Shown here: one piece after another, positions 1-12,908 of the stretch
Layout: each line of letters starts with the position of its first letter
Position numbering within the stretch: the stretch's first letter is position 1
Assembly (NCBI GenBank): GCA_017525245.1
Contig: JAFXTE010000077.1
Location: forward strand, 22,600-86,599
From: Bacteroidales bacterium
GTDB lineage: Bacteria > Bacteroidota > Bacteroidia > Bacteroidales > WCHB1-69
Direction: 5' to 3'
DNA length: 64,000 nt
The notes under the pieces: generated by a model
What the model saw: the letters and a program-made list of their open reading frames with translations, nothing else
Told to the model about the DNA's origin: nothing
Databases searched by the model: none
Made by a program: the position numbers and the translations under genes

Positions 1-22
1 TCCTACCGGCAAATCACGGCGG

Positions 23-54: not shown

Positions 55-621
55 TTATAATTCTTCTGGGAGTTCGTCTTCTTCGTCAGGAATTTTCGTA
101 TCAAAAGCCAAGAAAACCTCTAAAAATGCTGTTTCTTTGTAAAAACAATTAGGATCATCAAGCATCTTATCTTCTATAAAATGGAATCCCCAATTGGCAT
201 ATTCCTCCATCGTCTTCATAAGCATATCAACTGCTTTTCGGGAAGTCATTTCCCCTTTTTCCAAAGCGATGAAATCAATGTCGGTGCGAGCGACAAGGGC
301 GGTGAATAGGTACTCTCGGAGTTTTGGATAAGCCTTCCTTCCCTTAACAGAATCCAAATTACCCCAATATTGGATAGGCTGACCAAAAGTCTTACGTTTT
401 TGGGTATCTTCAATGAGTGGTCTTCTTTGGTCAAAATACAAACCCATAAAGAAAGCGACAATAAATATTTCATAACCACCACCGAATATCTTGCCTCTTT
501 CTTCACGCAATGATGTTGCACCACGACCATACTCACAAAAGATTTTAATGATGTCTTCGTATCTCTTTTCCCATTGTGGGTTACGACTCGCCCACAAATC
601 ATATATTTTTTCTGTTGCCAT
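55..621 (-). CDS. Unknown 188-aa protein, last gene of the phosphorothioation-like operon
   Basis: A 188-aa soluble protein with no signal peptide or membrane segment. It has a mixed helical pattern, a glycine cluster (FGGGYE, about residues 46-51) and a strongly acidic tail. I do not recognise the family. It sits 22 bp after the DndD-like ATPase gene, the place dndE holds in dndBCDE operons, but it is longer than DndE (about 110-130 aa) and I do not see DndE's basic N-terminal motif. A role as a DNA-binding partner or modification accessory is inferred from position only. The downstream -7 box at 23-30 suggests that this gene closes the operon. Confidence 0.6.
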   Translation of the reverse strand: MATEKIYDLWASRNPQWEKRYEDIIKIFCEYGRGATSLREERGKIFGGGYEIFIVAFFMGLYFDQRRPLIEDTQKRKTFGQPIQYWGNLDSVKGRKAYPKLREYLFTALVARTDIDFIALEKGEMTSRKAVDMLMKTMEEYANWGFHFIEDKMLDDPNCFYKETAFLEVFLAFDTKIPDEEDELPEEL

Positions 622-643
622 AATGGATATATTTGTATTATCT

Positions 644-2830
644 TTATAATAGAGAATTCTTTACGATTTCAATTGTTGTTTGGATAGTCTCAATCTTATT
701 TTCGTCAAAAGGTTCAACTTTTTTAATTCGATAAACAGAACAATTTAACTTATTTATAGTTTCCATATCCAATTTTTTTTCTCCTGTCTCATTATCTAAT
801 ATCAGCAGATCTTTGGTAGCAATTACACATTGTTTATCAATTTGATCAATGACATTATAGAAAATATCTCTTTTATAATTGCCAAATGAAGATGTTGGCG
901 CATCAAAAATTAACGGATAGTCCTGTTCGCGTTTTAGCGTGGTGATTTGTGAAATAGCAAATAAAACAGACATATACATAGTTGTCTTCAACGCGCCATT
1001 CGGGTTTTCAATTCGAGTGTTATTGTCGCTATATAATTCGATTCGTGCAGAATTATTGATTGTTTTTCTGATGCGGATTATGCCATAAAAATCGTTCTTG
1101 TTCAATTTTTTTAGATACTTGTTTGATTCTGCCTCAAGCATTTGGAGGAAATTATTGATGTTTTGTTCTTTCGCATTAGCAAATGCTTTGGTTATTCTTT
1201 CAAATGCAGTATGAACTCGCTGATAAACCTGCGTCATTGAGCTCCCTGGTGTAAGTTGAGACAATTTTTCTTGTATCTCTGCCTTCAAACTCTCCTTGAA
1301 TTTTAAAGTGGTTTCTAATTCAGAAACACGACTTTCATAGCGACTTTTTGTGTCGAAGAAACCTCTTAAATCCAATATATTCTTATCTAGTAATTCTGCA
1401 GTCGAACCTGATTGCACCAGTAAATCACTTTGCTCTTGTTCCAATTCTTTTAACTGTTTCTCAACTTCTGCTAATTCTTCTTTCCTTGTGTTTACAAACT
1501 CCAAACAATCCGTAATCGTCGTTGCAATTTTTGAAATTTCTTGCTCATTATCTCCACTTAATCTGATCTGGCGAGAATGTAATTCATTGATGAAAGAATT
1601 GACAAATAGGGGTTTTTCATCGTCTTCTTTCGTATTAGAATTGATATTAGCTTCTTCTGCTATATGAGCAAGATATTCATTAAGTTTATTACACATGAAT
1701 TTGTAAGCGTCTGAATCTTTAGGGGCAGGACGACCACAAACCTTACATATTTCATCATCAATCATTTCTTTCATTGTTGCCTCATCGGGCAAATTCCACG
1801 GCAATGGGACAGCATCATTAGCTAGTTTCTGAATTCTCGAAATAGCCTCCCGTTCACCAGCTTTTTTTGCACGGCGTTCTGTTTCTTGCTTGTCAAGTCT
1901 TCTTTTTTCTTTGCTTAAAGCAGATACTTTTGCAGAAAACTCTTTTATGATAGGAGGAAAAGAACGCAAAATCCAATATTCATCCAACAAATTAGTATTA
2001 TACTCGCAAGATGACAAAGCAAGTAATCTTACACGCTTGTCTTTAAGACCTTTTATGCGTTCTTTTATTGCTTGATAGCGTTCTGTTGTTTCTTGATTCT
2101 TTTCTAGATTTTCCAACTCTGAGGAAAACTTATTGATGGAAATCTTCTTTTGATTAAGTTCTGTTTTAATGCTCTGAATATCGTTTACAACATCAGTTAA
2201 TTGGGCGTTCAGTTCTTTTGCTTGTTTTGATACTTTTCTGTCGTTTTGCAATTCGCGACTGGTTGCACGTGCAGAACTTTGTTCAAAACTTGATGTCAAA
2301 TCAACCAATTTATCAAAATCTCGAATTCCCGAAAAAGTATCGACCAGGGTTTTCAATGCAGTGTCATTGTCAAACACATTAAGTTCATTTTCACCTTTAA
2401 ACAAACAGTATTTTCGTATTACAGGCTCAAAGCACATATTTAATAGTATATCACCAGCAACTCTACGGCGTTCAGAACCGTCTACAACATACCCGATAAA
2501 TTTGTAATCCTTTGTGCGTATGTTGTCAGTGGTTGTTTTTTCAAAGGTGAAACATTTCTCTATCTCTTTTTCGCCATCATGTTCAAAGCTTATATTTACA
2601 GCAACCTCATCACTCTCTCCTATTCTCAATTCTGATTTTCGCTTTTCAGAAATGTGTGATTCTTTTCTGTTCTCACCTGTTGTGTCGAAAAGCCATTCCA
2701 ATGCTTCAAATAAGGTGGTTTTCCCATCGCCATTATCTCCGATTACTAATGTCAGACTTTTTGATAAAGAAAGGTGATTGTCACCATAATAACTGCGAAA
2801 GTTCTTGATTTGTATTTTTTTTATAATCAT
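644..2830 (-). CDS. DndD/Rad50-like SMC-family ATPase with zinc-hook motif
   Basis: A 728-aa SMC/Rad50-type ATPase. Walker A is GDNGDGKTT (residues 31-39), after the typical N-terminal start IKNFRSYYG. Long coiled coils flank a central CKVC motif near residue 361, a Rad50-like zinc hook. A Walker B/D-loop stretch (LIFDAPTSSFG) lies near residue 641. This is the layout of DndD, the ATPase of DNA phosphorothioation, and it lies in one operon with a DndC-like gene. Its start overlaps the stop of the 77-aa gene by four bases (ATGA), so the two are translationally coupled. A generic RecF/RecN-like ATPase of another defence type is the alternative; the DndC-like partner favours DndD. Confidence 0.75.
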   Translation of the reverse strand: MIIKKIQIKNFRSYYGDNHLSLSKSLTLVIGDNGDGKTTLFEALEWLFDTTGENRKESHISEKRKSELRIGESDEVAVNISFEHDGEKEIEKCFTFEKTTTDNIRTKDYKFIGYVVDGSERRRVAGDILLNMCFEPVIRKYCLFKGENELNVFDNDTALKTLVDTFSGIRDFDKLVDLTSSFEQSSARATSRELQNDRKVSKQAKELNAQLTDVVNDIQSIKTELNQKKISINKFSSELENLEKNQETTERYQAIKERIKGLKDKRVRLLALSSCEYNTNLLDEYWILRSFPPIIKEFSAKVSALSKEKRRLDKQETERRAKKAGEREAISRIQKLANDAVPLPWNLPDEATMKEMIDDEICKVCGRPAPKDSDAYKFMCNKLNEYLAHIAEEANINSNTKEDDEKPLFVNSFINELHSRQIRLSGDNEQEISKIATTITDCLEFVNTRKEELAEVEKQLKELEQEQSDLLVQSGSTAELLDKNILDLRGFFDTKSRYESRVSELETTLKFKESLKAEIQEKLSQLTPGSSMTQVYQRVHTAFERITKAFANAKEQNINNFLQMLEAESNKYLKKLNKNDFYGIIRIRKTINNSARIELYSDNNTRIENPNGALKTTMYMSVLFAISQITTLKREQDYPLIFDAPTSSFGNYKRDIFYNVIDQIDKQCVIATKDLLILDNETGEKKLDMETINKLNCSVYRIKKVEPFDENKIETIQTTIEIVKNSLL

Positions 2831-3060
2831 ATATTCGATTTTAAAAAGTTACTAACTTCATTGTAAATTTCTCTTTCTGTGGCATTTTGTTCATTTCGGT
2901 AAATGATTTGAGCAATGGCTTGAATTACAGGAATGTCAGAATCCAACGCATCTGATATTAAACTGTAATCATCGGGATTGTAGCCATAGAAATTAACAAG
3001 CTGCCCATCAGCAATCACAGCTTGCAAAATTTTATCGCAATTTGTTTGATACTTACTCAT
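2827..3060 (-). CDS. Small 77-aa hypothetical protein of the defence operon
   Basis: A 77-aa, mostly helical, mildly acidic protein without a recognised family. It lies 6 bp after the nuclease-helicase gene and overlaps the DndD-like gene by four bases, so it is clearly co-translated. It could be a structural subunit that links the helicase or the SMC-like ATPase to another component. No catalytic motif is visible. That it is a real gene rests on the tight spacing and the open frame between two large genes. Confidence 0.6.
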   Translation of the reverse strand: MSKYQTNCDKILQAVIADGQLVNFYGYNPDDYSLISDALDSDIPVIQAIAQIIYRNEQNATEREIYNEVSNFLKSNI

Positions 3061-3066
3061 AGTGCA

Positions 3067-5334
3067 CTAATTAAATATGGATAAATTATAATGATTCAAT
3101 ACATCTTGTAATTCAGTAATGGTGTTGTTCAGATTCTCCGACAGTAATGCAAAATCTCGAACTCTTTTCAACTCGCTTTCTACAAGCCCTTTTTCTAATG
3201 TATAACATTCACCTTCAAACACATTATCCGGAACAACAATGAGATCGTGTATAACAGCGAAACGTTTGTCTTTGTGCGTGCGCAGAACACGGCCACGACG
3301 TTGGATGAATTGACGCGGGTTTCCTGTACTCGCACAGAAAATAGCCAATTCGCTTCTTGGCACATCGATACCCTCGTCCAAACATTTCATCGAGGTAAGC
3401 ACATCGATGCTACCATCAGCAAACTCTTTGAGCATGGCATCCCGGTCGGTGGATTCAGAGGTGAACTGGCGGACGACGATATGAGAATCCAAGTCGCGGA
3501 CAATGCGGGTGAAATCGTCAATAAGATGCTCGGTTTCGGGATCCGTTGCAATGGTGTCTAACTGGTCGAAAATGTCCGCCTCGTAGTTGTCGGGCATATT
3601 GCCCTCCGGTACATAGACTAACGTATATTTCAGACTGCCCCTTTCTAACATTCGCTGTTGGAGAATCTGCTGGAAAACAGTCAACTTGTTGACCGCTTTA
3701 TGAATGATGCGTTTGCGTCTCAACAAGAGCATTTTCAGCATCTCCTGACTCTTTTCGTCTTGATAACCCATCATTTTTGCGATCTTCCCAGAAAGTTCAA
3801 CGTAGTCATCCATTTCGTTCTCGGTCAGACGGACAATGTGAGGATAGTAGTAATAACGGCACAATGCACCTTTCCGGATCGCTTCGTCCATTGTGTACTC
3901 GAACGTATAGTGGTCATCACAACCGAAAAAATCCATCAGCTTCCGGTTACCTATTTCGTCATATTGGCGTTCTGGTGTGGCGGAAAGACCAATTCGCCGC
4001 AAATACTTTATCTCTGGCAAGCGCTTGACCGTCAATCCACCACCCATGTTGTGGGCTTCGTCCGCAATAAGCAGCAATTTGCTTTTCGGAAATTGGTTCA
4101 ACTCCATGAATACTTCGGAACGCACAAAAGAAGCATACGTGGATATGATGATGTAAGACAATTTGTTGCTGCTGTTACTCAATTCGAGCAATCTCAGATT
4201 GGCAATAGCGGATTTCCATCTGTTATATTTGGAACAGACTTTAATTATATTGCTGAAATTAAATTTTTTACACTCGACTTCCCACTGCTCTACAAGCGTG
4301 ATAGTTGGAACAAGAATAATGGCCTTGTAAAAATCAAACTTCTTGTATATCTCCAACAAACAGTTCAAAGCCGTAATAGTTTTACCAGTTCCTGTTGCCA
4401 TAGCGAACAATCCCTTTTGTCCGTTGTTCTTCCAATTCTCGAACGCTTGCTTCTGATAATCTCTCGGACCGGATTTATATGGGAAACAAGGTTCGTGATT
4501 TTGGAGAATTCCGCTTCCTATTTTTGCTTTTATTTTCTCAATTTCTCTCTCAACCTTGATTTTGGCTATTCCCAATGCTTTAATCACAGTCTGGGGCAAA
4601 CTTTTGACAGAAATGTCTTGTTGAATGAATTTATACTCATCTTCCAAAAGTTCTCTAAGTTCTTTATTCTTGAAAGCTCCTTCTATGCGTGTTCTAACCT
4701 TATCGGTAGGAATAAACACAACGCTTTCATCTTTACCCGTGAAAACGAGTTCGAAATCATCCATTAGCGAATTAATCGTAGCCGTAGAAGTGTCTCCGTC
4801 CCAATCACATGAAACGGTTAAACTTTCGAGATTGTCAATCAACGCCGATCGGGAAAAATTACATGATCCATCAAAGCCCACTTTGTTCAAGCCGTCGCTA
4901 AAAACACCTGTTTTCGTATGGGAAATTCCAACGCCCTCTTTGGGAGCAACAATCCTTATCTCCAAACGATTGTTGCGGATTAACCATGCTAAGCAGTCAA
5001 AAAAGTGGGTATCTCGTTCCGACAATGTATTCTTTAATTGTTCAATATTTGTAATATCAAAATATGGTATTGGAACATCCAATTCTCCGTTGGCAATCGC
5101 CTTCTTGTCTTCTTCAGTCAGAATGTCATTCACAATCAATCTCATACGACCTCCATTGTACAAGAACGAAGCAAAACCGTATGATAACACATTGATGGCT
5201 GATGAGGAAAAGAAACCGAGCATCAAATCGAATTGGGTTGAATTGCACAAACAATCAGAGAAGAAACCGACAGGTTCCCACTCGGTACGCGACTTGTATC
5301 GCCGATGAACTGGAAAATTTACTTCTTTAAGCAT
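3067..5334 (-). CDS. PLD-family nuclease fused to SF2 DEAH helicase
   Basis: A 755-aa two-domain protein. The N-terminal part (to about residue 200) is phospholipase-D-like: His139-x-Lys141 followed by Asp147, then GSCNFS at 156-161, as in HKD nucleases of restriction systems. The spacing is HxKx5D rather than the usual HxKx4D. The rest is an SF2 helicase: Walker A ATGTGKT (313-319), DEAH (425-428), SAT (451-453) and the motif VI core QRRGR near residue 660. Such fusions work as nuclease-translocases; in phosphorothioation clusters helicase-nucleases serve as restriction enzymes (established for the class, inferred here). It is the likely effector of the operon and lies between the 127-aa and 77-aa genes. 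Confidence 0.8.
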   Translation of the reverse strand: MLKEVNFPVHRRYKSRTEWEPVGFFSDCLCNSTQFDLMLGFFSSSAINVLSYGFASFLYNGGRMRLIVNDILTEEDKKAIANGELDVPIPYFDITNIEQLKNTLSERDTHFFDCLAWLIRNNRLEIRIVAPKEGVGISHTKTGVFSDGLNKVGFDGSCNFSRSALIDNLESLTVSCDWDGDTSTATINSLMDDFELVFTGKDESVVFIPTDKVRTRIEGAFKNKELRELLEDEYKFIQQDISVKSLPQTVIKALGIAKIKVEREIEKIKAKIGSGILQNHEPCFPYKSGPRDYQKQAFENWKNNGQKGLFAMATGTGKTITALNCLLEIYKKFDFYKAIILVPTITLVEQWEVECKKFNFSNIIKVCSKYNRWKSAIANLRLLELSNSSNKLSYIIISTYASFVRSEVFMELNQFPKSKLLLIADEAHNMGGGLTVKRLPEIKYLRRIGLSATPERQYDEIGNRKLMDFFGCDDHYTFEYTMDEAIRKGALCRYYYYPHIVRLTENEMDDYVELSGKIAKMMGYQDEKSQEMLKMLLLRRKRIIHKAVNKLTVFQQILQQRMLERGSLKYTLVYVPEGNMPDNYEADIFDQLDTIATDPETEHLIDDFTRIVRDLDSHIVVRQFTSESTDRDAMLKEFADGSIDVLTSMKCLDEGIDVPRSELAIFCASTGNPRQFIQRRGRVLRTHKDKRFAVIHDLIVVPDNVFEGECYTLEKGLVESELKRVRDFALLSENLNNTITELQDVLNHYNLSIFN

Positions 5335-5335
5335 A

Positions 5336-5689
5336 TTAATTCTCTTTTTCTTTTAAAAACAATTCAATACCTTTAGCCACAAAAACATCCACTTCCTCAT
5401 CAGTCATTTCATCATAACAAAAGGACTCATCTTCTGAACAATCACCTATTACATCCTCTGGATATAGATGTCCTTTGGGCCACATAAACTCTTCTCCAAC
5501 GGATTCTGCTATTTTGCTAATCGAAGGAGTTCCATCTTCTTCGAAAAACTCTGCTCTTTGACAACAAACATCCTCTTCAGACATTTCTTCAACGTATTCA
5601 GTCCAGGAGTTGTATAATTCAATCGCCCGATTATACACTGTATTGGAAATAAGTCCCCCAACTTTTAAAAACAACTCGGATTTATTCAT
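5336..5689 (-). CDS. Small acidic hypothetical protein of the defence operon
   Basis: A 117-aa strongly acidic protein, unrecognised, with several cysteines (CC and C..D.SFC) and a Glu/Asp-rich C-terminal half. I chose the ATG at 5689, 8 bp after the stop of the DndC-like gene; an in-frame extension to 5719 would overlap that gene by 22 bp, and an ATG at 5695 is also possible. It ends one base before the helicase start. Its acidity and position between the modification and nuclease genes would fit a regulator or inhibitor of the nuclease, but this is only inference. Confidence 0.6.
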   Translation of the reverse strand: MNKSELFLKVGGLISNTVYNRAIELYNSWTEYVEEMSEEDVCCQRAEFFEEDGTPSISKIAESVGEEFMWPKGHLYPEDVIGDCSEDESFCYDEMTDEEVDVFVAKGIELFLKEKEN

Positions 5690-5697
5690 AAGCATCT

Positions 5698-6798
5698 CTA
5701 TATAAAACAATTTGTACACATAATATCATCACCAAGTATATCAACGAGTGTGGCCCCTTTACTCTGTTTGCGATTCTCCTCCTGGCGCTTAATCACATCA
5801 AGTTTGATTTGACGCACTCTCTCGGGTCTACACAATTCTTTCAAGCTCTCATTTTGATTCCAGGTATAGCCATCTTTCTCGAATTCCATCGCTTTCTGAT
5901 ATAGATCCGGATGTTGTTCATACAGCCAGACCCATTCGATCTTCTGTTGAAAAAAACAGAAGTAGCACCCTGAGCGACTGCGACAGTATGTGCCCGTTTT
6001 ACCGTCAACCTCAAAAGGAATCTCTTCATAATAGGCAGGAACACCGACTCCACTCTCCCTTAACAATCTGAAAATGTCATCTTTCACTAAGACATCTGTA
6101 TTGTCCAGCAATGGGAAATTATTCAATTGTCCTATAGGGTAGTCTGTCGTTTTCAAAAACTCAAACACGACGTGGTTGAACAATTTGACATCGTAATCAA
6201 GCAAAGCATTCATTTTCTTTGAGTAATAGAAATGCTTAGATAGAGGCTGTCTAACAGTCGTCATAATATCTTCTTTGAGAATAGTGTTTGGACAAAGACT
6301 ATCATAAATGGCAATTAGCTGTTCTAAATTATCGTTGTGAAGAATTTTGTTGACGACATCAATGCTCCAAATATTCTTACGAAAAGGAAATACTGCTTGA
6401 ATGTTCGGTTTCGAAGATATATACCCGTCCCTGTCCTCATCTCCTCGTATACCCACATACGAAACTGCCAAATCTTCTCCGACATATTTTTCAAATTCTG
6501 CCAATTTCATCTTCTGGGTACACCATCGAGCTTGGGGAGATGGAAGGAAACCACCATTTGCCTTGAGGAAATGATGAAATGGTGTTGGTTCAGGGCTGTC
6601 TTCGGCAGCTCTTAACTTGTTGATTTTTCCCAGATATGCTTCTAAACGATCTATCAACATTTCCGTTTCGGCAAGTTCACATCCCGTGTCCGAATTGTAG
6701 AATTCTATAGGCAAAGACGGATACCGCTGTTTCATGTAGATAGCTAATGCGGCACTGTCTTTGCCTCCTGATATGCCCAATATGTGCCTGATTTTCAT
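5698..6798 (-). CDS. DndC-like PAPS-reductase-fold sulfurtransferase
   Basis: A 366-aa adenine nucleotide alpha hydrolase of the PAPS reductase/DndC type. The P-loop SGGKDS is at 10-15, the DTG motif at 37-39, RWC at 91-93 and GIRGDEDRDGY at 117-126. A cysteine cluster follows at 272, 278 and 281 with Cys323, plausible Fe-S ligands as in DndC. The chain ends in a CTNC motif (361-364), which is unusual. DndC activates DNA for sulfur incorporation in phosphorothioation (family knowledge). The start codon overlaps the end of the 1078-aa ATPase gene by four bases. The operon context with a DndD-like ATPase argues against assimilatory CysH, as no other sulfate-assimilation gene is present. Confidence 0.8.
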   Translation of the reverse strand: MKIRHILGISGGKDSAALAIYMKQRYPSLPIEFYNSDTGCELAETEMLIDRLEAYLGKINKLRAAEDSPEPTPFHHFLKANGGFLPSPQARWCTQKMKLAEFEKYVGEDLAVSYVGIRGDEDRDGYISSKPNIQAVFPFRKNIWSIDVVNKILHNDNLEQLIAIYDSLCPNTILKEDIMTTVRQPLSKHFYYSKKMNALLDYDVKLFNHVVFEFLKTTDYPIGQLNNFPLLDNTDVLVKDDIFRLLRESGVGVPAYYEEIPFEVDGKTGTYCRSRSGCYFCFFQQKIEWVWLYEQHPDLYQKAMEFEKDGYTWNQNESLKELCRPERVRQIKLDVIKRQEENRKQSKGATLVDILGDDIMCTNCFI

Positions 6799-9700
6799 TG
6801 TTTGATCTTTTTGTTGAGGATAGACAGTAAAGTGCAGACATCCAAATTGTTGTCTCCTGAGAGGAGTTGATTAATGCGCTCTTCTAATTTGGTTGACTTA
6901 TCCTTATCACTCTTAGGGAGGATGTATGTCTGCGTATGAAATGTTTCTCCCTTGCTAGAAACCATGTCAAATGAATATGCCTCAAAGCCTGTCAAATCAT
7001 CTGTCTTTTTGGATATATCAGCATACTTTTCACATTCACGAAACATATAAACGAGATCATTCGAGAGTTTCTCTTCCTCCTCATCTTTAAGAGATTCCAA
7101 TTTATGGTCTAACACCACGTAACAAATGGATTGGAACCATAAAGTCCGATTATCATATTCTGTCATAACATGGTGGTAGAACTCTTTTAATTTGTCTGTC
7201 AAAAGGTATGTTTTAACCGATGACAATCTTTCTTGAACTTCTTGGACATACTTTTCGTAATCTCCATTTTGAAGTCCAAACTCATCGACGACCCGTTCTT
7301 CAATTCTGTCTATCAGTTGGCTATAGCAAGAACGGAGTTCTCTAATTGACCTGTGAATTAGAGCCCCATAACTTTCCAAAGACTTACTATCAGAAAGATT
7401 TCTCTTATCAAATCCTAAAGCTTCCGGCAAATCTTCAAAAAATGCCTTTTCCGGATCTTTGGCCGTCGCGAGAACGTTTCGGAAACGCTCGGTGGTCTGG
7501 TGGTCGAATTTTCGTGTATGTTTAGCATATTCATTTAGTCGCTTGTAAAAAAAGAGAAACGGCTTGATTGTTTCGATAAAATTATCCGTAGTTATTGATA
7601 ATTCCTCTCCCAAATTCACATACTTCCGATACTGGTTAAAGAAGTCAAGACTGACACCATCTAACGCAAATGCCTTAACTGTATAGTTTGAGGGCTGTCT
7701 TTGTAAGAGTTCAAAGAATGCCATATCAACAACAGGAATATAGGATCCCGTTGAGACATCATGCAGAGCATAATCTTGACGTTTAATAAACAAATATGTC
7801 GGCATCCAAAAGTCAATAAAACCTTGTTTCAGTTTGTATGGTTTTTGTGAAAGAAGTTTAATTAGTTCAGAAATTCGTCTTGGTTTATTAATCGTGCTTT
7901 TCAAGAAAGTCTCGCAGGCGTTCCACAGCGGCATAATTCCATCGTTTTTTGGAGAATCGTGAAGGAAACCTTCTTTGTGCAGCCCAGTATTTTTCAACAA
8001 AGAGCAATAGATGGTCTTCTCTGGAGGAAACTTGTTCTCTTCAAATCCCAAGTCCGATTCCGAATGATGTTCCACTAATGCCGTGAGATAGTTCTTTTTA
8101 GCCAAAGATATGGTACTGCTCAGTTTTTGTCTGTTGAATAGTTCGTTGATGAGGACAGGTGTCTTAGAATAGATAGTGTCACAGACAAAGGACAACAACT
8201 TGTTGAAATCCATAAAGTTTGACACCTTGTATGTTTCACCCTGGAAAATCCAATCCACTTGACCTTTGTATGCGAACAGACAGTCACTGATTGCTTTGTT
8301 CAACAAGGTTTCCTCATATTCAACCAACTTTTCAATTTCATTATACGCAACACGATCCCCGTTTTTGTCTATCAAAACTTTCTCGAGAATGTATTTGTAT
8401 TTCTGAATGTTGTACAAATGATCAACCAAATTCTCTGTGTTTTTGAAATACACATAGATAATAGCTTCTCCATCATTTTCACGACTAAAATCCTTGACTC
8501 TTTCCAAAAAATCAGGAGATTGATTGAAAATCAGTTCTATAAAGCCATCGGTATCACCTGTGGGCGACAGTAATATTGGTTCTTCCCTTATTTCATATTC
8601 AAAAAAGCGAGGTGTCCCTTTTTGATAATAATGTGCTTTAACGGGAGCTATGCGTTTGTTTATGAAACTTCTTAAATCATCAATGAAATCCGCAGGACGT
8701 GACACAATTGATCCTGCTCTGAGTACTTCCGCTTCTAAATCGACATCTGTGCCATCAAACAGAAGCAATCGACTTTTATATTCAGCATATCTGATGATTT
8801 TTGCATTACGAAGACGTTGAATGATGTATGTCGCGTTCTCCACATCCATAGCATTGGTAGCATAGTCGCACATCTGTGATTCAGAAAGACGGAAACTTGC
8901 CTTTCCGAATAAATTCAACAATCCAATAGCTTTCAATATCTTGACCGCATTCGACATATCAATAGCGTTATCCCATGGCAAACCTTCCGCACGCTCGACA
9001 GCCACTTGCATAGAGCTCCAACTCATAGAATCAGTATTTGCATCTTTCAGATATGAGTAGAAGTTGTAAACAATATAATCATAGACATTTGCAAGATTAT
9101 ACGAACATCTTTCACTTGGTTCAAAATCCTGAATAGAATTGGAACCTCGGGTTGACAAGAAAGAGAAAAGGGATCGTTCGTTTTGACCATAACGATGGAT
9201 GGCGGAAGTGATAGTGTAAGCAGAAAAAGCATCCAAGGGATATAGTTGCAATGCAGTCTCCTCGGAAAAAGTATTTGCTAAAAGTCCAGTTTCCTGAGAA
9301 AGTCGATACAGACGTTGTGCATTTGCTGTTTCTGAGTTATTATGGTCGTGCAAAAGTTGTTTAGAAGCCAAAAACAACAGTTGCTCTACAGGTTCCACAA
9401 ATGCTATTTCCATAAAACGTCCCTTGACTTTCTGCCACTCGTTTTTTTGCGCTTCAGTCAAATCCTTTGAGTATGCGCCAAAATTTTGATGCAGTGTGGT
9501 AAGAAGTAAGATGTTTCTGGAAGGATGATTAACAAATTCCGCCAACTTTTGCATGAAGTACAATTCTCGCTCAGGATTGTTCTTCGCAGCGTGTTCCAAA
9601 ATTTTACCAAATTCATCCACAACTATTACCAAAAATTTATTCTCTGATTCTACTTTTCTGTAATAGGCTTTCAATTCATCAAGAACACTTTGTGAAGTCC

Positions 9701-10031
9701 CTTCTACATGCAATTTTTGCCCCAACAAAGTTGACAGTTCTTGGTAATCTCCAACAATATTAAGTATCATGTACCCTTTAGCGGATGAGAGATTCGATGA
9801 GTTTAATAGCCGTGGTTGCCTGTTCGTCCTTTTCAAATCGGACTCTAAAGCCAACAAAAAGCTCGACTTCCCTGTCCCGTATGTGCCAATTATAGTAAAT
9901 GAGTGTATGCCGGATTTGTAGCCGTCAACAATTGCGCTAACGGATTTCAATCCATTAGGCGTGACAACGTATTGCATCGCGCTTGGGAAACCATCTTCTA
10001 TATTTGCCGACAGACTAAAGGACTGATTCAT
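6795..10031 (-). CDS. Large P-loop ATPase of the defence operon
   Basis: A 1078-aa protein with an N-terminal AAA-like ATPase: Walker A GTYGTGKSS (49-57) and Walker B FLVIVVDEFGK (133-143), then a long region of mixed helices and strands without further motifs I recognise. The general shape recalls the large ATPases of BREX (BrxC/PglY) and of phosphorothioation restriction (DptF/DptH), but I cannot assign it to either. It overlaps the DUF4007 gene by 17 bp and the DndC-like gene by 4 bp, so it belongs to the operon. A role as an energy-using recruiter or sensor is inferred. Confidence 0.7.
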   Translation of the reverse strand: MNQSFSLSANIEDGFPSAMQYVVTPNGLKSVSAIVDGYKSGIHSFTIIGTYGTGKSSFLLALESDLKRTNRQPRLLNSSNLSSAKGYMILNIVGDYQELSTLLGQKLHVEGTSQSVLDELKAYYRKVESENKFLVIVVDEFGKILEHAAKNNPERELYFMQKLAEFVNHPSRNILLLTTLHQNFGAYSKDLTEAQKNEWQKVKGRFMEIAFVEPVEQLLFLASKQLLHDHNNSETANAQRLYRLSQETGLLANTFSEETALQLYPLDAFSAYTITSAIHRYGQNERSLFSFLSTRGSNSIQDFEPSERCSYNLANVYDYIVYNFYSYLKDANTDSMSWSSMQVAVERAEGLPWDNAIDMSNAVKILKAIGLLNLFGKASFRLSESQMCDYATNAMDVENATYIIQRLRNAKIIRYAEYKSRLLLFDGTDVDLEAEVLRAGSIVSRPADFIDDLRSFINKRIAPVKAHYYQKGTPRFFEYEIREEPILLSPTGDTDGFIELIFNQSPDFLERVKDFSRENDGEAIIYVYFKNTENLVDHLYNIQKYKYILEKVLIDKNGDRVAYNEIEKLVEYEETLLNKAISDCLFAYKGQVDWIFQGETYKVSNFMDFNKLLSFVCDTIYSKTPVLINELFNRQKLSSTISLAKKNYLTALVEHHSESDLGFEENKFPPEKTIYCSLLKNTGLHKEGFLHDSPKNDGIMPLWNACETFLKSTINKPRRISELIKLLSQKPYKLKQGFIDFWMPTYLFIKRQDYALHDVSTGSYIPVVDMAFFELLQRQPSNYTVKAFALDGVSLDFFNQYRKYVNLGEELSITTDNFIETIKPFLFFYKRLNEYAKHTRKFDHQTTERFRNVLATAKDPEKAFFEDLPEALGFDKRNLSDSKSLESYGALIHRSIRELRSCYSQLIDRIEERVVDEFGLQNGDYEKYVQEVQERLSSVKTYLLTDKLKEFYHHVMTEYDNRTLWFQSICYVVLDHKLESLKDEEEEKLSNDLVYMFRECEKYADISKKTDDLTGFEAYSFDMVSSKGETFHTQTYILPKSDKDKSTKLEERINQLLSGDNNLDVCTLLSILNKKIKQ

Positions 10032-10884
10032 AATAACGATCTAAAACGTTCATTTTATCTAAAGAATGGATAATTTGTAATTGTCGTACACCTGCCACAT
10101 CATTATATGCCAATGCGTCGGGATATAAATCAGCAAGCTTCTTTGCCATTTCCAGTATCTCAAGATTATTCATACAAAATACAAGACCAAGTTCTTGTAA
10201 TTGGTCAAAAGAAATGCTAAAATTGCCTGAATCAACATCAGAAAGAAGAGCAAAGAGAAAACAATGCGGTGGAATCTGACGTTTCCCATCAACATTAAAA
10301 TAATAGGTCTTATTTTCTTCTTTTTGACGAAGTAAATCAAGGTCTATAAGCAGGTTGGAATATTCTTCGTGAGATTGAGGTGCATGGGGTAGAGTATAAT
10401 TCTGGAAGAGGACTCCTATGTCTTTCTTTACCGTGTTTGGATTGAACAGCTTTTCCGATCCTTGTTCAACCATCTTCCTTTTGATGAAATTCAGTATGTG
10501 TTCACGTTCAAATTCTTTTCTTTCTTTTTGGTAATCAACAAAGAACAAAGAATATAACGATGCAATACGGCTATGGACAATGAGAAAATGCAACAGCCAA
10601 AGGGTTCCTGAGTCTTCCAAGAATGGGTCTTTCCCTGTTTCACTGTCAAAAAGATAATCCGCCATAGCTGTTGGTTTGTTGTCTTCAATTAGAGAAAAGG
10701 CCTTTAACCAATAGCGAATGGCAGTAACCATATTCTTGCCAACACCCAAATGTATTACAGCATCTGGCGAGTTAAAGTCATGACCATCCTTAATAAAATC
10801 ATACCCCTTCTTCAGCCATAGTGATTTGCAAGGGAATGATTCATGCCCTGAGAACACATATCGGTTTTTTTCCTGTTTGTCCAT
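10015..10884 (-). CDS. DUF4007 family protein, first gene of the defence operon
   Basis: 289 aa from the ATG at 10884. The N-terminal FSGHESFPCK, followed by LGVGKNMVTAIRYWLKAF and LEDSGTLWLLHFL, is characteristic of DUF4007, a family commonly found beside DndC-type PAPS reductases. No catalytic residues are evident. The reading frame stays open upstream (a TTG at 11047-11049, no stop until about 11101), but I prefer 10884 because DUF4007 similarity begins there and a GGAAGAA stretch lies just before it. It overlaps the ATPase gene by 17 bp. The role is unknown; being first in the operon, it may be a specificity or adaptor subunit. Confidence 0.75.
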   Translation of the reverse strand: MDKQEKNRYVFSGHESFPCKSLWLKKGYDFIKDGHDFNSPDAVIHLGVGKNMVTAIRYWLKAFSLIEDNKPTAMADYLFDSETGKDPFLEDSGTLWLLHFLIVHSRIASLYSLFFVDYQKERKEFEREHILNFIKRKMVEQGSEKLFNPNTVKKDIGVLFQNYTLPHAPQSHEEYSNLLIDLDLLRQKEENKTYYFNVDGKRQIPPHCFLFALLSDVDSGNFSISFDQLQELGLVFCMNNLEILEMAKKLADLYPDALAYNDVAGVRQLQIIHSLDKMNVLDRYYESVL

Positions 10885-11134
10885 TTTTTGTATTCTTCCG
10901 CGCCATAATAAAGAAGCGTGAACCACTTTATTTTCTGTCAAGGCTCCGGAATGGCCTGCGGCAACAATAAAGTAACTCCACGCCCAAGCGCAGACATCAC
11001 TCTTTGCTGTTGCCGCTTCAAAATTTTCCGGATTCTGACAGGCACACAAAAAGACAATGCTTTCGTATAAGTTATCGTATAAAGAAGTCCCCTTCTCTTA
11101 TAGGCAATTCAATTTGGTTAATATTAATAAACCG
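10885..11134 (-). other. Long leader of the defence operon with open in-frame extension
   Basis: About 240 nt separate the promoter (11135-11169) from the DUF4007 ATG. The leader stays in frame with DUF4007 for about 70 codons, starting right after a TAA near 11101, and has no ATG; a TTG is at 11049. It could be an N-terminal extension, a remnant of a rearranged gene, or a regulatory leader. A TTAATATTAA palindrome lies near 11118-11127, close to the expected transcription start. Confidence 0.35.
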
Positions 11135-11169
11135 CAAAAATAGCATTTTTCCGCATACATTCTGCCAAA
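11135..11169 (-). promoter_or_regulatory. Promoter of the defence operon
   Basis: On the minus strand TATTTTTG (11135-11142) matches the Bacteroidota -7 box, and TTTG (11166-11169) lies 23 bp upstream as a -33 element. It faces the eight-gene operon and is the only good match in the 250 bp before it. Confidence 0.6.
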
Positions 11170-12005: not shown

Positions 12006-12908
12006 TCACTCCCGCATCATCCTCACCCGATACCGCACGAACTCCCGTAACTCCTCCCCGCCAAGGATCTCCACGTCATCGTAGAGACCCAGGATGAAGC
12101 GGGTGACACCCTCCAGGCGGCAGACCTCCGTCTCCAACAGGTAGCGGCCGCCCTCCTCCGCCTTCAGGAACGGCTCCGACAGCGGGTATTCCTCCGTCAA
12201 TAAGCTCGCCGCACGGGTGGAGAGGCGCAGTCGCACGGGGAATCGCTGAGTGCCGTGCAACCGGAAGATATCGACGTAGCCCGTCTCGTGTTTCTCTTCG
12301 TAACGCCAGCCGGTTTCCAGTACTTCCACCCGCTGGATGCGCGTCACTTTGAAGGTCTTCACCATTTTGGACCCAGGCTCGTAGCACCAGACTTGGTCAT
12401 GGCCAGACGTGAAATCGTAGGGTTCCACTAAACGGTCGGTGGTAGAGTTGCTGTGCCCCGATCGGTAACCCACCAGCACCGCCTGTCGCTGTCCCTCTAT
12501 GGCCGTTGTCAGCTCGTGGATGGTGCGTTGAGTGCGTTTGCTCACCCCCATGTCGGTGATAACCTTGTAGTCATAGACCGCGTACAATTTCTTCTTCAGC
12601 AGTTCCTTTGACTTGGTGTTCGACTCAATGGAGTCGATGGCGGCACGCAGCACTAATTCCTCTTCCTCAGAGAAGTGTAGTAGTTCGCGGAGATGCCGCG
12701 ACATCTTGTTGGCTGCCGTTTCTATGCGATAGGCGTTGTATTCGTTCTTCTTGACGGCAAAACCCGCTTCGCGGAACGTGTCAATGTAACGGAAGAAGGT
12801 ACGCTCGCAGAAGCCAAAACGCTCGCAGATTTCCTCCTTGTTCATATATCGGTTGTTGGCGAGGAGCATTAGTAGTTGCAGCTCGCGCACGATTCTCGGT
12901 TGGTCCAT
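12006..12908 (-). CDS. WYL-domain transcriptional regulator
   Basis: A 300-aa regulator: an N-terminal winged helix-turn-helix (about 5-60, with ICERFGFCERTFFRYIDTFR), then a WYL-type domain (about 140-215) and a C-terminal WCX-like extension. The WYL signature is replaced by VWCYEP near residue 170. Proteins of this build (DeoR-like, CapW/BrxR) bind palindromes upstream of their own gene and sense nucleic-acid or nucleotide ligands; some control phage defence loci (family knowledge). Here a 19-bp imperfect palindrome lies right behind the -7 box of the gene. It is 1.1 kb from the defence operon promoter, separated by the divergently read lipoprotein gene, so a link to the operon is possible but not shown. 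Confidence 0.85.
   Translation of the reverse strand: MDQPRIVRELQLLMLLANNRYMNKEEICERFGFCERTFFRYIDTFREAGFAVKKNEYNAYRIETAANKMSRHLRELLHFSEEEELVLRAAIDSIESNTKSKELLKKKLYAVYDYKVITDMGVSKRTQRTIHELTTAIEGQRQAVLVGYRSGHSNSTTDRLVEPYDFTSGHDQVWCYEPGSKMVKTFKVTRIQRVEVLETGWRYEEKHETGYVDIFRLHGTQRFPVRLRLSTRAASLLTEEYPLSEPFLKAEEGGRYLLETEVCRLEGVTRFILGLYDDVEILGGEELREFVRYRVRMMRE

What the first reader, a model, noticed from the sequence alone, without database searches (positions are those of the whole stretch)
55..11169. Eight-gene phosphorothioation-like defence operon of unusual composition
Seen: one minus-strand unit with overlaps of 4-17 bp or gaps of 22 bp or less, containing a DndC-like gene (SGGKDS, cysteine cluster), a DndD/Rad50-like ATPase, DUF4007, a 1078-aa ATPase, a PLD-helicase fusion and three unrecognised small genes. 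Known: DndC and DndD belong to DNA sulfur modification, and DUF4007 proteins often accompany such PAPS-reductase-fold genes. Missing: DndB, DndE and a cysteine desulfurase. Inferred: a self-contained system in which sulfur or a related group is put on DNA and unmodified (phage) DNA is attacked by the nuclease-helicase.
Basis: partly seen in the sequence, partly recalled or inferred. Interest (0 to 1): 0.9.

Follow-up and report, generated by a model that had tools for sequence, protein, structure and literature searches.

The report
SspBCD–PbeABCD sulfur-tagging defence operon
This bacterium carries one operon that joins a known enzyme set for tagging its own DNA with sulfur to a known set of virus-blocking proteins usually reported with a different tagging set, and related pairings turn up in other microbes.

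Summary
In detail: eight co-directional minus-strand genes (window 10884-55) lie in a low-GC stretch. Two of the three 'unrecognised small genes' are PbeB and PbeD. A ninth gene starts at window base 1: a sulfur-binding domain with an HNH nuclease.

PbeABCD was described with Dnd writers, SspBCD with SspE or SspFGH. I found no description of SspBCD with PbeABCD in the papers opened. The pairing recurs: of 68 PbeA loci, 28 have an SspC-type writer nearby, 17 Dnd, 23 neither. Twelve of the 28 are SspBCD-type Bacteroidota; 16, mostly Firmicutes, carry SspB-SspC, with a BrxP-like sulfurtransferase in the three scanned. Among 394 other genomes of the phylum, 6 of 9 PbeA genomes also have SspC, within 9 kb (0.5 expected).

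Verdict: a recurrent new combination of known PT restriction modules, with a candidate PT reader. Function is inferred; nothing was assayed.

The parts
10015..10884 (-). sspB (DUF4007; DNA-binding/nicking subunit of the PT writer), 289 aa from the ATG at 10884
   Evidence: PF13182 245 bits; PADLOC SspB 311.7 bits; start placed; solved SspB 6juf/6lb9 E=1.7e-15
6795..10031 (-). sspC (large ATPase of the PT writer), 1078 aa
   Evidence: PADLOC SspC 1205.8 bits (BrxC 199 bits); Walker-A-like G49..K55-S56 and D139-E140 at least 95% conserved in 31 sequences
5698..6798 (-). sspD (PP-loop sulfurtransferase of the PT writer), 366 aa
   Evidence: PADLOC SspD 290 bits; S10-G-G-K-D-S15 at least 95% and cysteines 93, 278, 281, 361, 364 fully conserved in 22 sequences; no PF01507 match
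5336..5695 (-). unknown acidic ORF in the slot between writer and effector, 119 aa from the first ATG (frame opens at GTG 5719)
   Evidence: no Pfam, PADLOC or NCBIfam match; pI 4.05 for residues 10-127; no convincing homologue in 246 other genomes of the order; L089 has a 125-aa acidic ORF in the same slot, pairwise E=0.001
3067..5334 (-). pbeA (HKD/PLD nuclease-like domain + SF2 helicase), 755 aa
   Evidence: PADLOC PbeA 1089 bits; TIGR04095 405 bits (cut-off 600); H139, K141, D147, S157, N159 and helicase residues (A313-G315, G317-T319, D425-E426, H428, S451-T453, Q678-R679) at least 95% conserved in 73 sequences
2827..3060 (-). pbeB (small protein), 77 aa
   Evidence: position and size as in pbeABCD; own profile finds homologues at the same place in relatives
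644..2830 (-). pbeC (ABC ATPase with zinc-hook CxxC), 728 aa
   Evidence: AAA_23; best PADLOC PbeC 75 bits; C362 and C365 invariant in 16 close relatives; many other PbeC carry CxC
55..621 (-). pbeD (partner of PbeC, called a DndE cognate by Rakesh et al.), 188 aa
   Evidence: homologues directly downstream of PbeC in relatives; hhalign 99.2% to PbeD of five loci not Ssp-coupled; no support against DndE
1..1 (-). first base of a 314-aa SBD-HNH gene that continues outside the window (L010:9056-10000)
   Evidence: residues 5-144 match sulfur-binding domain SBDHga1 8h0l, E=3.1e-9; HNH_2 50.5 bits; NF045808 84.9 bits (cut-off 180), best stretch in the HNH half

Best explanation
A PT-based restriction-modification operon of hybrid make-up. 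SspB, SspC and SspD put sulfur on one DNA strand at a short motif, using sulfur from a cysteine desulfurase encoded elsewhere, because no sspA lies in this operon. PbeC-PbeD scan DNA. PbeA (helicase plus HKD nuclease-like domain), with PbeB, blocks replication of DNA that lacks the tag. As reported for archaeal DndCDEA-PbeABCD, the effector probably needs tagged host DNA to be active and spares tagged DNA. The SBD-HNH gene at the end is a candidate PT reader, either a second-line nuclease or a self-recognition factor. The acidic ORF between the modules is replaceable cargo, perhaps a regulator. Shown here: gene identities, conserved motifs, operon layout, recurrence of the pairing.
For: Matches to SspB, SspC, SspD and PbeA with motif residues conserved across relatives. 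Recurrence: 28 of 68 PbeA loci have an SspC-type writer, 17 Dnd, 23 neither; 6 of 9 other PbeA genomes of the phylum have SspC, hypergeometric P=8e-7. PbeA tree: the Ssp label needs 5 changes, shuffled mean 25.5; a starred Bacteroidota branch is 20 Ssp of 21 rows, a starred Firmicutes-and-allies branch 15 of 16. In Bacteroidota SspC and PbeA distances correlate, r=0.76, n=12. Relatives add a cysteine desulfurase (20 of 28 loci) and sometimes DndB. SBD-type ORFs: 7 in 106 loci, each the next SBD-bearing ORF downstream of PbeD in Ssp-coupled Bacteroidota. Precedents: PbeABCD needs PT in the host and spares PT-marked virus (PMC6459918, two results sections); 2,211 of 2,678 sspBCD lack sspE and sspFGH (PMC8092258).
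Against: No PT was measured and no phage assay is known to me for this pairing. No cysteine desulfurase in the operon; the genome offers a SufS and a TIGR01977-type enzyme. In Firmicutes and allies the sulfurtransferase scores far higher as BrxP than as SspD (258 against 51 bits in L107; same trend in L125 and L127), so only 12 of the 28 writers are SspBCD-type, and SspC-PbeA distances correlate weakly there (r=0.25, n=10; SspC-PbeC r=0.15, not significant). 23 of 68 PbeA loci have neither writer in the DNA in hand. Only 20 of the 28 have SspB, SspC and a sulfurtransferase all in hand, and L088 and L099 have broken writers. A PT-binding nuclease beside a PT writer looks self-destructive unless regulated or differently specific. 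PbeC scores only 75 bits to its best model. Genomes in the counts are related, so the P value is optimistic.
Confidence: 0.72

Rival explanations
1. Two independent defence systems share an island: an orphan SspBCD (epigenetic, or with an unlinked effector such as an SspE-like DUF262 protein) and a Pbe set that uses another mark or none.
For: Pbe also occurs with Dnd (17 of 68) or neither (23 of 68); weak SspC-PbeA correlation in Firmicutes and allies; the genome has PF03235 (DUF262) matches on three other contigs; in some relatives Ssp and Pbe lie on opposite strands (L069-L071, L097, L098, L100, L190).
Against: Overlapping or abutting genes in one direction here; association far above expectation; writer type is conserved along PbeA branches; in Firmicutes and allies a cysteine desulfurase usually sits between the writer and PbeA.
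Confidence: 0.15
2. PT-sensing rather than PT-blocked defence: tagged host DNA, read by the SBD protein, switches the effectors on, as PT does for SspE and DndI.
For: SBD-type proteins, with or without a nuclease, follow PbeD in 7 loci; PbeABCD gave no protection without PT (PMC6459918); SspE and DndI are PT-sensing (PMC11662687, passages).
Against: Only 7 of 21 Bacteroidota Ssp-coupled loci with DNA beyond PbeC in hand (counted by eye) have the SBD gene and my profile found none in Firmicutes and allies, so it cannot be the general switch; PT-marked virus escaped archaeal Pbe.
Confidence: 0.3
3. Decayed relic: a writer without its sulfur donor.
For: No sspA in the operon; two relatives have broken writers (L088: sspB fragment and a SIR2-Argonaute gene where sspC should be; L099: short sspC piece and no sspD).
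Against: All eight frames are open and motifs conserved here; DndA can be replaced by an unlinked IscS (PMC7464106, passages).
Confidence: 0.07
4. Assimilatory sulfur metabolism (CysH) cluster.
For: PP-loop motif shared with PAPS reductases.
Against: No PF01507 match for SspD; the genome's PF01507 matches are on another contig; neighbours are defence genes.
Confidence: 0.01

Closest known systems
DndCDEA-PbeABCD of Haloterrigena jeotgali (Xiong et al. 2019, PMC6459918, abstract and two results sections read)
   Same: Effector cassette pbeA-pbeB-pbeC-pbeD in the same order and with similar sizes and domains
   Different: Writer is Dnd there and Ssp here; here an extra ORF lies between writer and effector and an SBD-HNH gene follows
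SspABCD-SspE (Xiong et al. 2020, recalled) and SspABCD-SspFGH (Wang et al. 2021, PMC8092258, results in part and discussion read)
   Same: Writer genes sspB-sspC-sspD
   Different: No SspA in the operon and no SspE match listed; the effector is PbeABCD; SspFGH was not tested as such
CxC ABC-ATPase-DndE systems (Rakesh et al. 2024, PMC10853773, sections 16 and 17 and passages read)
   Same: PbeA/B/C/D are their HKD-helicase, small protein, CxC ATPase and DndE cognate
   Different: They describe coupling with DndDE and with cytosine methylases; I saw no coupling with SspBCD in the parts read. The zinc hook here is CxxC; DndE kinship of PbeD was not supported by sequence here
BREX type 4 (PMC12839542, passages read)
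   Same: Shares homologues of SspB, SspC and SspD; the Firmicutes Pbe loci scanned even carry a BrxP-like sulfurtransferase
   Different: No PglZ or BrxL match listed for the window's proteins (for PbeC only the best 25 of 47 families were shown); not tested in the Firmicutes loci
SBD-HNH PT-dependent endonucleases (PMC7461809, passages read)
   Same: Domain order of the ninth gene
   Different: That paper places fewer than 3.6% of such enzymes near dnd clusters; here it adjoins an Ssp-Pbe operon. Rakesh et al. report wHTH-SAD-HNH genes in Dnd loci of 698 taxa

Membership tests
Ssp PT writer | SspB (DUF4007) present | tested here: met
   PF13182 245 bits, PADLOC SspB 311.7 bits
Ssp PT writer | SspC ATPase present | tested here: met
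   PADLOC SspC 1205.8 bits
Ssp PT writer | SspD sulfurtransferase with PP-loop and cysteines | tested here: met
   PADLOC SspD 290 bits; conserved SGGKDS and five cysteines
Ssp PT writer | SspA cysteine desulfurase in the cluster | tested here: not met
   none among the eight genes; SufS and TIGR01977 types elsewhere in the genome. Can be supplied in trans in Dnd systems, so not treated as strictly defining
Ssp PT writer | single-strand PT, e.g. 5'-CpsCA | not testable with these tools
   needs LC-MS/MS and PT mapping
Ssp effectors SspE/SspFGH | SspE or SspFGH beside the writer | tested here: inconclusive
   no SspE match listed for the ten proteins (for PbeC only 25 of 47 families shown); I did not check whether PADLOC holds SspF, SspG and SspH models; PF03235 genes exist elsewhere in the genome
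PbeABCD | PbeA: PLD/HKD + ResIII + helicase C | tested here: met
   1089 bits, PF04851, PF00271, HKD residues conserved
PbeABCD | PbeC ABC ATPase with zinc hook | tested here: met
   PADLOC PbeC 75 bits, AAA_23, CxxC; the weakest of the matches
PbeABCD | small PbeB and PbeD in the order A-B-C-D | tested here: met
   positions, sizes and homologues in relatives
PbeABCD | PbeD is a DndE homologue | tested here: inconclusive
Dnd writer | DndC equivalog | tested here: not met
   SspD 20.4 bits against cut-off 290.4; no TIGR03183 match in the genome
Assimilatory CysH | PF01507 PAPS reductase domain | tested here: not met
   no match for SspD; two matches on contig C11
BREX type 4 | PglZ and BrxL | tested here: not met
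PT-dependent SBD-HNH endonuclease | SBD plus HNH | tested here: met
   8h0l E=3.1e-9 over residues 5-144; HNH_2; NF045808 below its cut-off

The most novel reading that the evidence does not exclude
SspBCD-PbeABCD is a recurrent, so far unnamed class of PT defence that accounts for part of both the 'orphan' sspBCD and the 'solitary' pbeABCD in the literature. The same Pbe effector has been taken up by three kinds of writer (Dnd, SspBCD, and SspBC with a BrxP-like sulfurtransferase), and in Bacteroidota an in-operon SBD protein is the missing PT reader.
Probability: 0.3. Interest if true: 0.75.

Novelty: new variant of a known kind. Interest (0 to 1): 0.57.

Why it matters
Wang et al. 2021 report that 2,211 of 2,678 sspBCD clusters have neither sspE nor sspFGH, and Xiong et al. 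2019 found dndCD near only 233 of 553 PbeAC. The pairing shown here offers partners for part of both sets. It makes a question testable: how can one effector be steered by different writers, and does an SBD protein read the mark?

Tried and rejected
Rejected: CysH reading; Dnd-minus-parts reading; BREX type 4 for the window. PbeD as DndE by profile comparison gave nothing. The acidic ORF has no convincing homologue (nine of 247 genomes gave a match at E<=0.1, own included; the best in another genome, E=1.7e-4, lies in a 948-aa frame). A plasmid search with PbeA gave 15 of 72,556 records, all under 60% identity; their flanks were not examined. Island edge: DNA shared with same-genus genomes begins near window 11,126 (L205) and 11,201 (L204); L206 and L207 match on this side only around the WYL gene, L208 not at all. 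The left edge was not found. The WYL gene 12006-12908 was considered as a regulator but is in 9 of 30 genus genomes searched, own included, and lies on the shared side.

PADLOC on L107, L125 and L127 shows a BrxP-like sulfurtransferase (258-267 bits, SspD 46-51), with SspB-type and, for L107, L127 and L150, SspC-type partners. I therefore count 12 SspBCD-type and 16 SspC-type loci apart. The acidic ORF's first ATG is 5695, not 5692.

Counting choices. Of the 80 loci, 12 were dropped before counting: L157-L167 (E of 5e-11 or weaker, no PbeC partner) and L144 (PbeA in pieces). A locus is Ssp-coupled if my SspC or SspD profile hits it at E<1e-5; 20 of 28 have SspB, SspC and a sulfurtransferase in hand; L088 and L099 have broken writers, others are cut by contig ends. 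Among the 41 loci with at least 6 kb on both sides: 16 Ssp, 14 Dnd, 11 neither. Two Dnd-labelled DndC proteins were confirmed against TIGR03183, the other 15 were not. In some searches at most two candidates per genome were scored; three weak SspC genomes (E of 2e-5 or weaker) were left out of the test; the 280-bit PbeA limit was set after seeing the gap down to 85 bits. The tree dropped 7 of 83 rows shorter than 600 aa. The phylum is taken to be Bacteroidota from named nearest relatives; no tool named it.


Full report
Observation. Eight minus-strand genes lie at window 55-11049, in the order (5' to 3') 344, 1078, 366, 127, 755, 77, 728 and 188 aa. The first 12 kb have 35-41% GC against 45-57% beyond. 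The first gene most likely starts at 10884. A ninth gene begins at window base 1, 53 bp after the eighth ends, and runs out of the window on contig C76 of the window's genome.

Identity of the writer. PADLOC profiles give SspB 311.7 bits, SspC 1205.8 and SspD 290. SspB also matches the solved SspB 6juf/6lb9. SspD keeps the SGGKDS loop (at least 95%) and cysteines 93, 278, 281, 361 and 364 (all) in 22 sequences. It does not match the PAPS reductase family PF01507, which finds two other genes in this genome, and scores 20.4 bits against a cut-off of 290.4 for DndC.

Identity of the effector. The 755-aa protein is PbeA (1089 bits), with an HKD-type N-terminus and a helicase. H139, K141, D147, S157, N159 and most helicase motif residues are at least 95% conserved in 73 sequences. 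The 77-, 728- and 188-aa genes follow in the order of pbeB, pbeC and pbeD as described for Haloterrigena jeotgali (PMC6459918, two results sections read), and homologues occupy the same places in relatives. The profile of Ssp-coupled PbeD matches PbeD of five loci without an Ssp writer at 99.2%. The DndE kinship asserted for PbeD by Rakesh et al. (PMC10853773, sections 16 and 17 and passages read) was not supported by hhalign with 14 DndE candidates picked by position.

Recurrence in the phylum. In 395 genomes including the window's own, SspC matches in 25, 22 of them strong. Full-length PbeA over 280 bits is in 10. Seven of those ten have SspC on the same contig, under 9 kb away; leaving out the window's genome it is 6 of 9, where 0.48 is expected from 21 of 394 (P=8e-7; relatedness ignored). 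Of the other three, two carry DndC beside PbeA and one neither. In 247 genomes of the order, 8 have PbeA; of the five further loci that I fetched of the seven, four are Ssp-coupled and one Dnd-coupled.

Recurrence across phyla. A scan of named genomes gave 80 loci. After dropping 12, 28 of 68 have an SspC-type writer, 17 Dnd and 23 neither. The 28 are two sets. Twelve are Bacteroidota with an SspD-type sulfurtransferase. Sixteen are mainly Firmicutes, with a Fusobacteriaceae, an Acholeplasmatales and a Methanobrevibacter MAG among them. In the second set the usual order is sulfurtransferase, SspB, SspC, cysteine desulfurase, PbeA, PbeC, and in the three scanned (L107, L125, L127) the sulfurtransferase is BrxP-like rather than SspD-like. 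This is a different writer mix, closer to BREX type 4; PglZ and BrxL were not looked for there. A cysteine desulfurase is in hand in 20 of the 28.

Evolution. On a quick maximum-likelihood tree of 76 PbeA (SH-aLRT support only), the Ssp label needs 5 changes (shuffled mean 25.5, none of 500 as low); the Dnd label needs 10 (17.9). A starred Bacteroidota branch holds 20 Ssp of 21 rows, a starred Firmicutes-and-allies branch 15 of 16, and L072 lies apart. SspC and PbeA distances correlate in Bacteroidota (r=0.76, n=12) but weakly in Firmicutes and allies (r=0.25, p=0.016, n=10; SspC-PbeC r=0.15, p=0.10), while within modules r is 0.85-0.98. So the pairing is stable in one group and re-assorting in the other.

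The slot and the tail. Between SspD and PbeA the cargo varies: nothing (L091, L092, L094); cysteine desulfurase, DndB or GIY-YIG-like genes in various sets (L068, L090, L095); a GHKL-ATPase trio (L187, homologous gene by gene to that of L070); another trio (L188, L189, 40-62% identical); or an acidic ORF of unknown kin (window; L089 weakly similar). After PbeD the window's genome has an SBD-HNH gene. A motif pattern found five such ORFs in the loci then in hand, and a profile built from them finds 7 ORFs in 106 loci, all downstream of PbeD in Ssp-coupled Bacteroidota. Four are too short to hold a nuclease and one is a fragment. The profile was seeded with five of the seven, so only two are independent finds. 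For L070 the PDB match to the SBD is marginal (E=0.012); for L094 it is firm (5.9e-17).

Mechanism. The best reading is a PT restriction-modification operon: SspBCD tags, PbeCD scans, and PbeA and PbeB block untagged DNA. PT dependence and sparing of PT-marked virus are published for Dnd-Pbe. Transfer of that behaviour to this operon is inference. The SBD protein could be reader, backup nuclease or both.

Prior art. Searches: sspBCD with pbeABCD (one paper); SspB with PbeA or PbeC (five listed, three opened); SspABCD with PbeABCD (nine papers, passages opened in all nine); Ssp with Pbe (20 of 32 listed, nine opened). Those I opened list the systems side by side or pair PbeABCD with Dnd; none of the passages describes SspBCD with PbeABCD. 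Two limits: PMC7464106 (passages) counts strains with 'PT-modifying genes', dnd or ssp, plus pbeA-D (10% of Mycobacterium and Vibrio) without saying there which writer, so ssp-pbe strains may already be inside its figure; and PADLOC has a catch-all 'PT_other' class (PMC9252829, passages) that could flag such loci. Krishnan et al. 2020 was not available, and subscription papers are not in the library.

Noticed in passing
L077:4444-10108, L078, L081, L085: Other SspBCD loci sit beside a gene with weak PbeA/helicase similarity and, in L077, L081 and L085, a MzaB-like (GHKL-type) protein of 606-640 aa; L077 also has an SspA and a weakly DrmC-like protein. Perhaps a separate SspBCD effector set.
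   Followed up: partly
L080:4175-6598, L082:4553-7006, L083:5222-7675: An 807-817 aa gene near SspBCD in three genomes with no PADLOC match.
   Followed up: partly
L107, L125, L127 (and probably most of the 16 Firmicutes-and-allies loci): Pbe effectors beside SspB-SspC with a BrxP-like sulfurtransferase: a writer mix between Ssp and BREX type 4.
   Followed up: partly
L088:3309-10000: The writer is broken: an SspB fragment is followed by a SIR2-Argonaute gene, an HNH gene and a methyltransferase/HIT gene where SspC should be, while SspD and PbeABCD remain.
   Followed up: partly
L127: An SspB-SspC-cysteine desulfurase-PbeA-PbeC cluster on a contig binned as Methanobrevibacter: an archaeal writer of this kind, or a contaminant contig of the MAG.
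   Followed up: no
L188:6305-9882 and L189:1460-5037: A conserved trio inside the Ssp-Pbe operon (547-549, 365-366 and 278 aa; 42, 62 and 40% identical); in L188 the second matches BrxC_BrxD at 31 bits and none of the three matches PADLOC.
   Followed up: partly
L107:14882-16042: A sigma-70-like protein follows the 175-aa ORF after PbeC in a Lachnospiraceae Pbe operon.
   Followed up: no
L010:7125-8230: A DUF1016 gene and a 166-aa ORF lie beyond the SBD-HNH gene, before a TetR/HlyD/AcrB-type efflux cluster.
   Followed up: no
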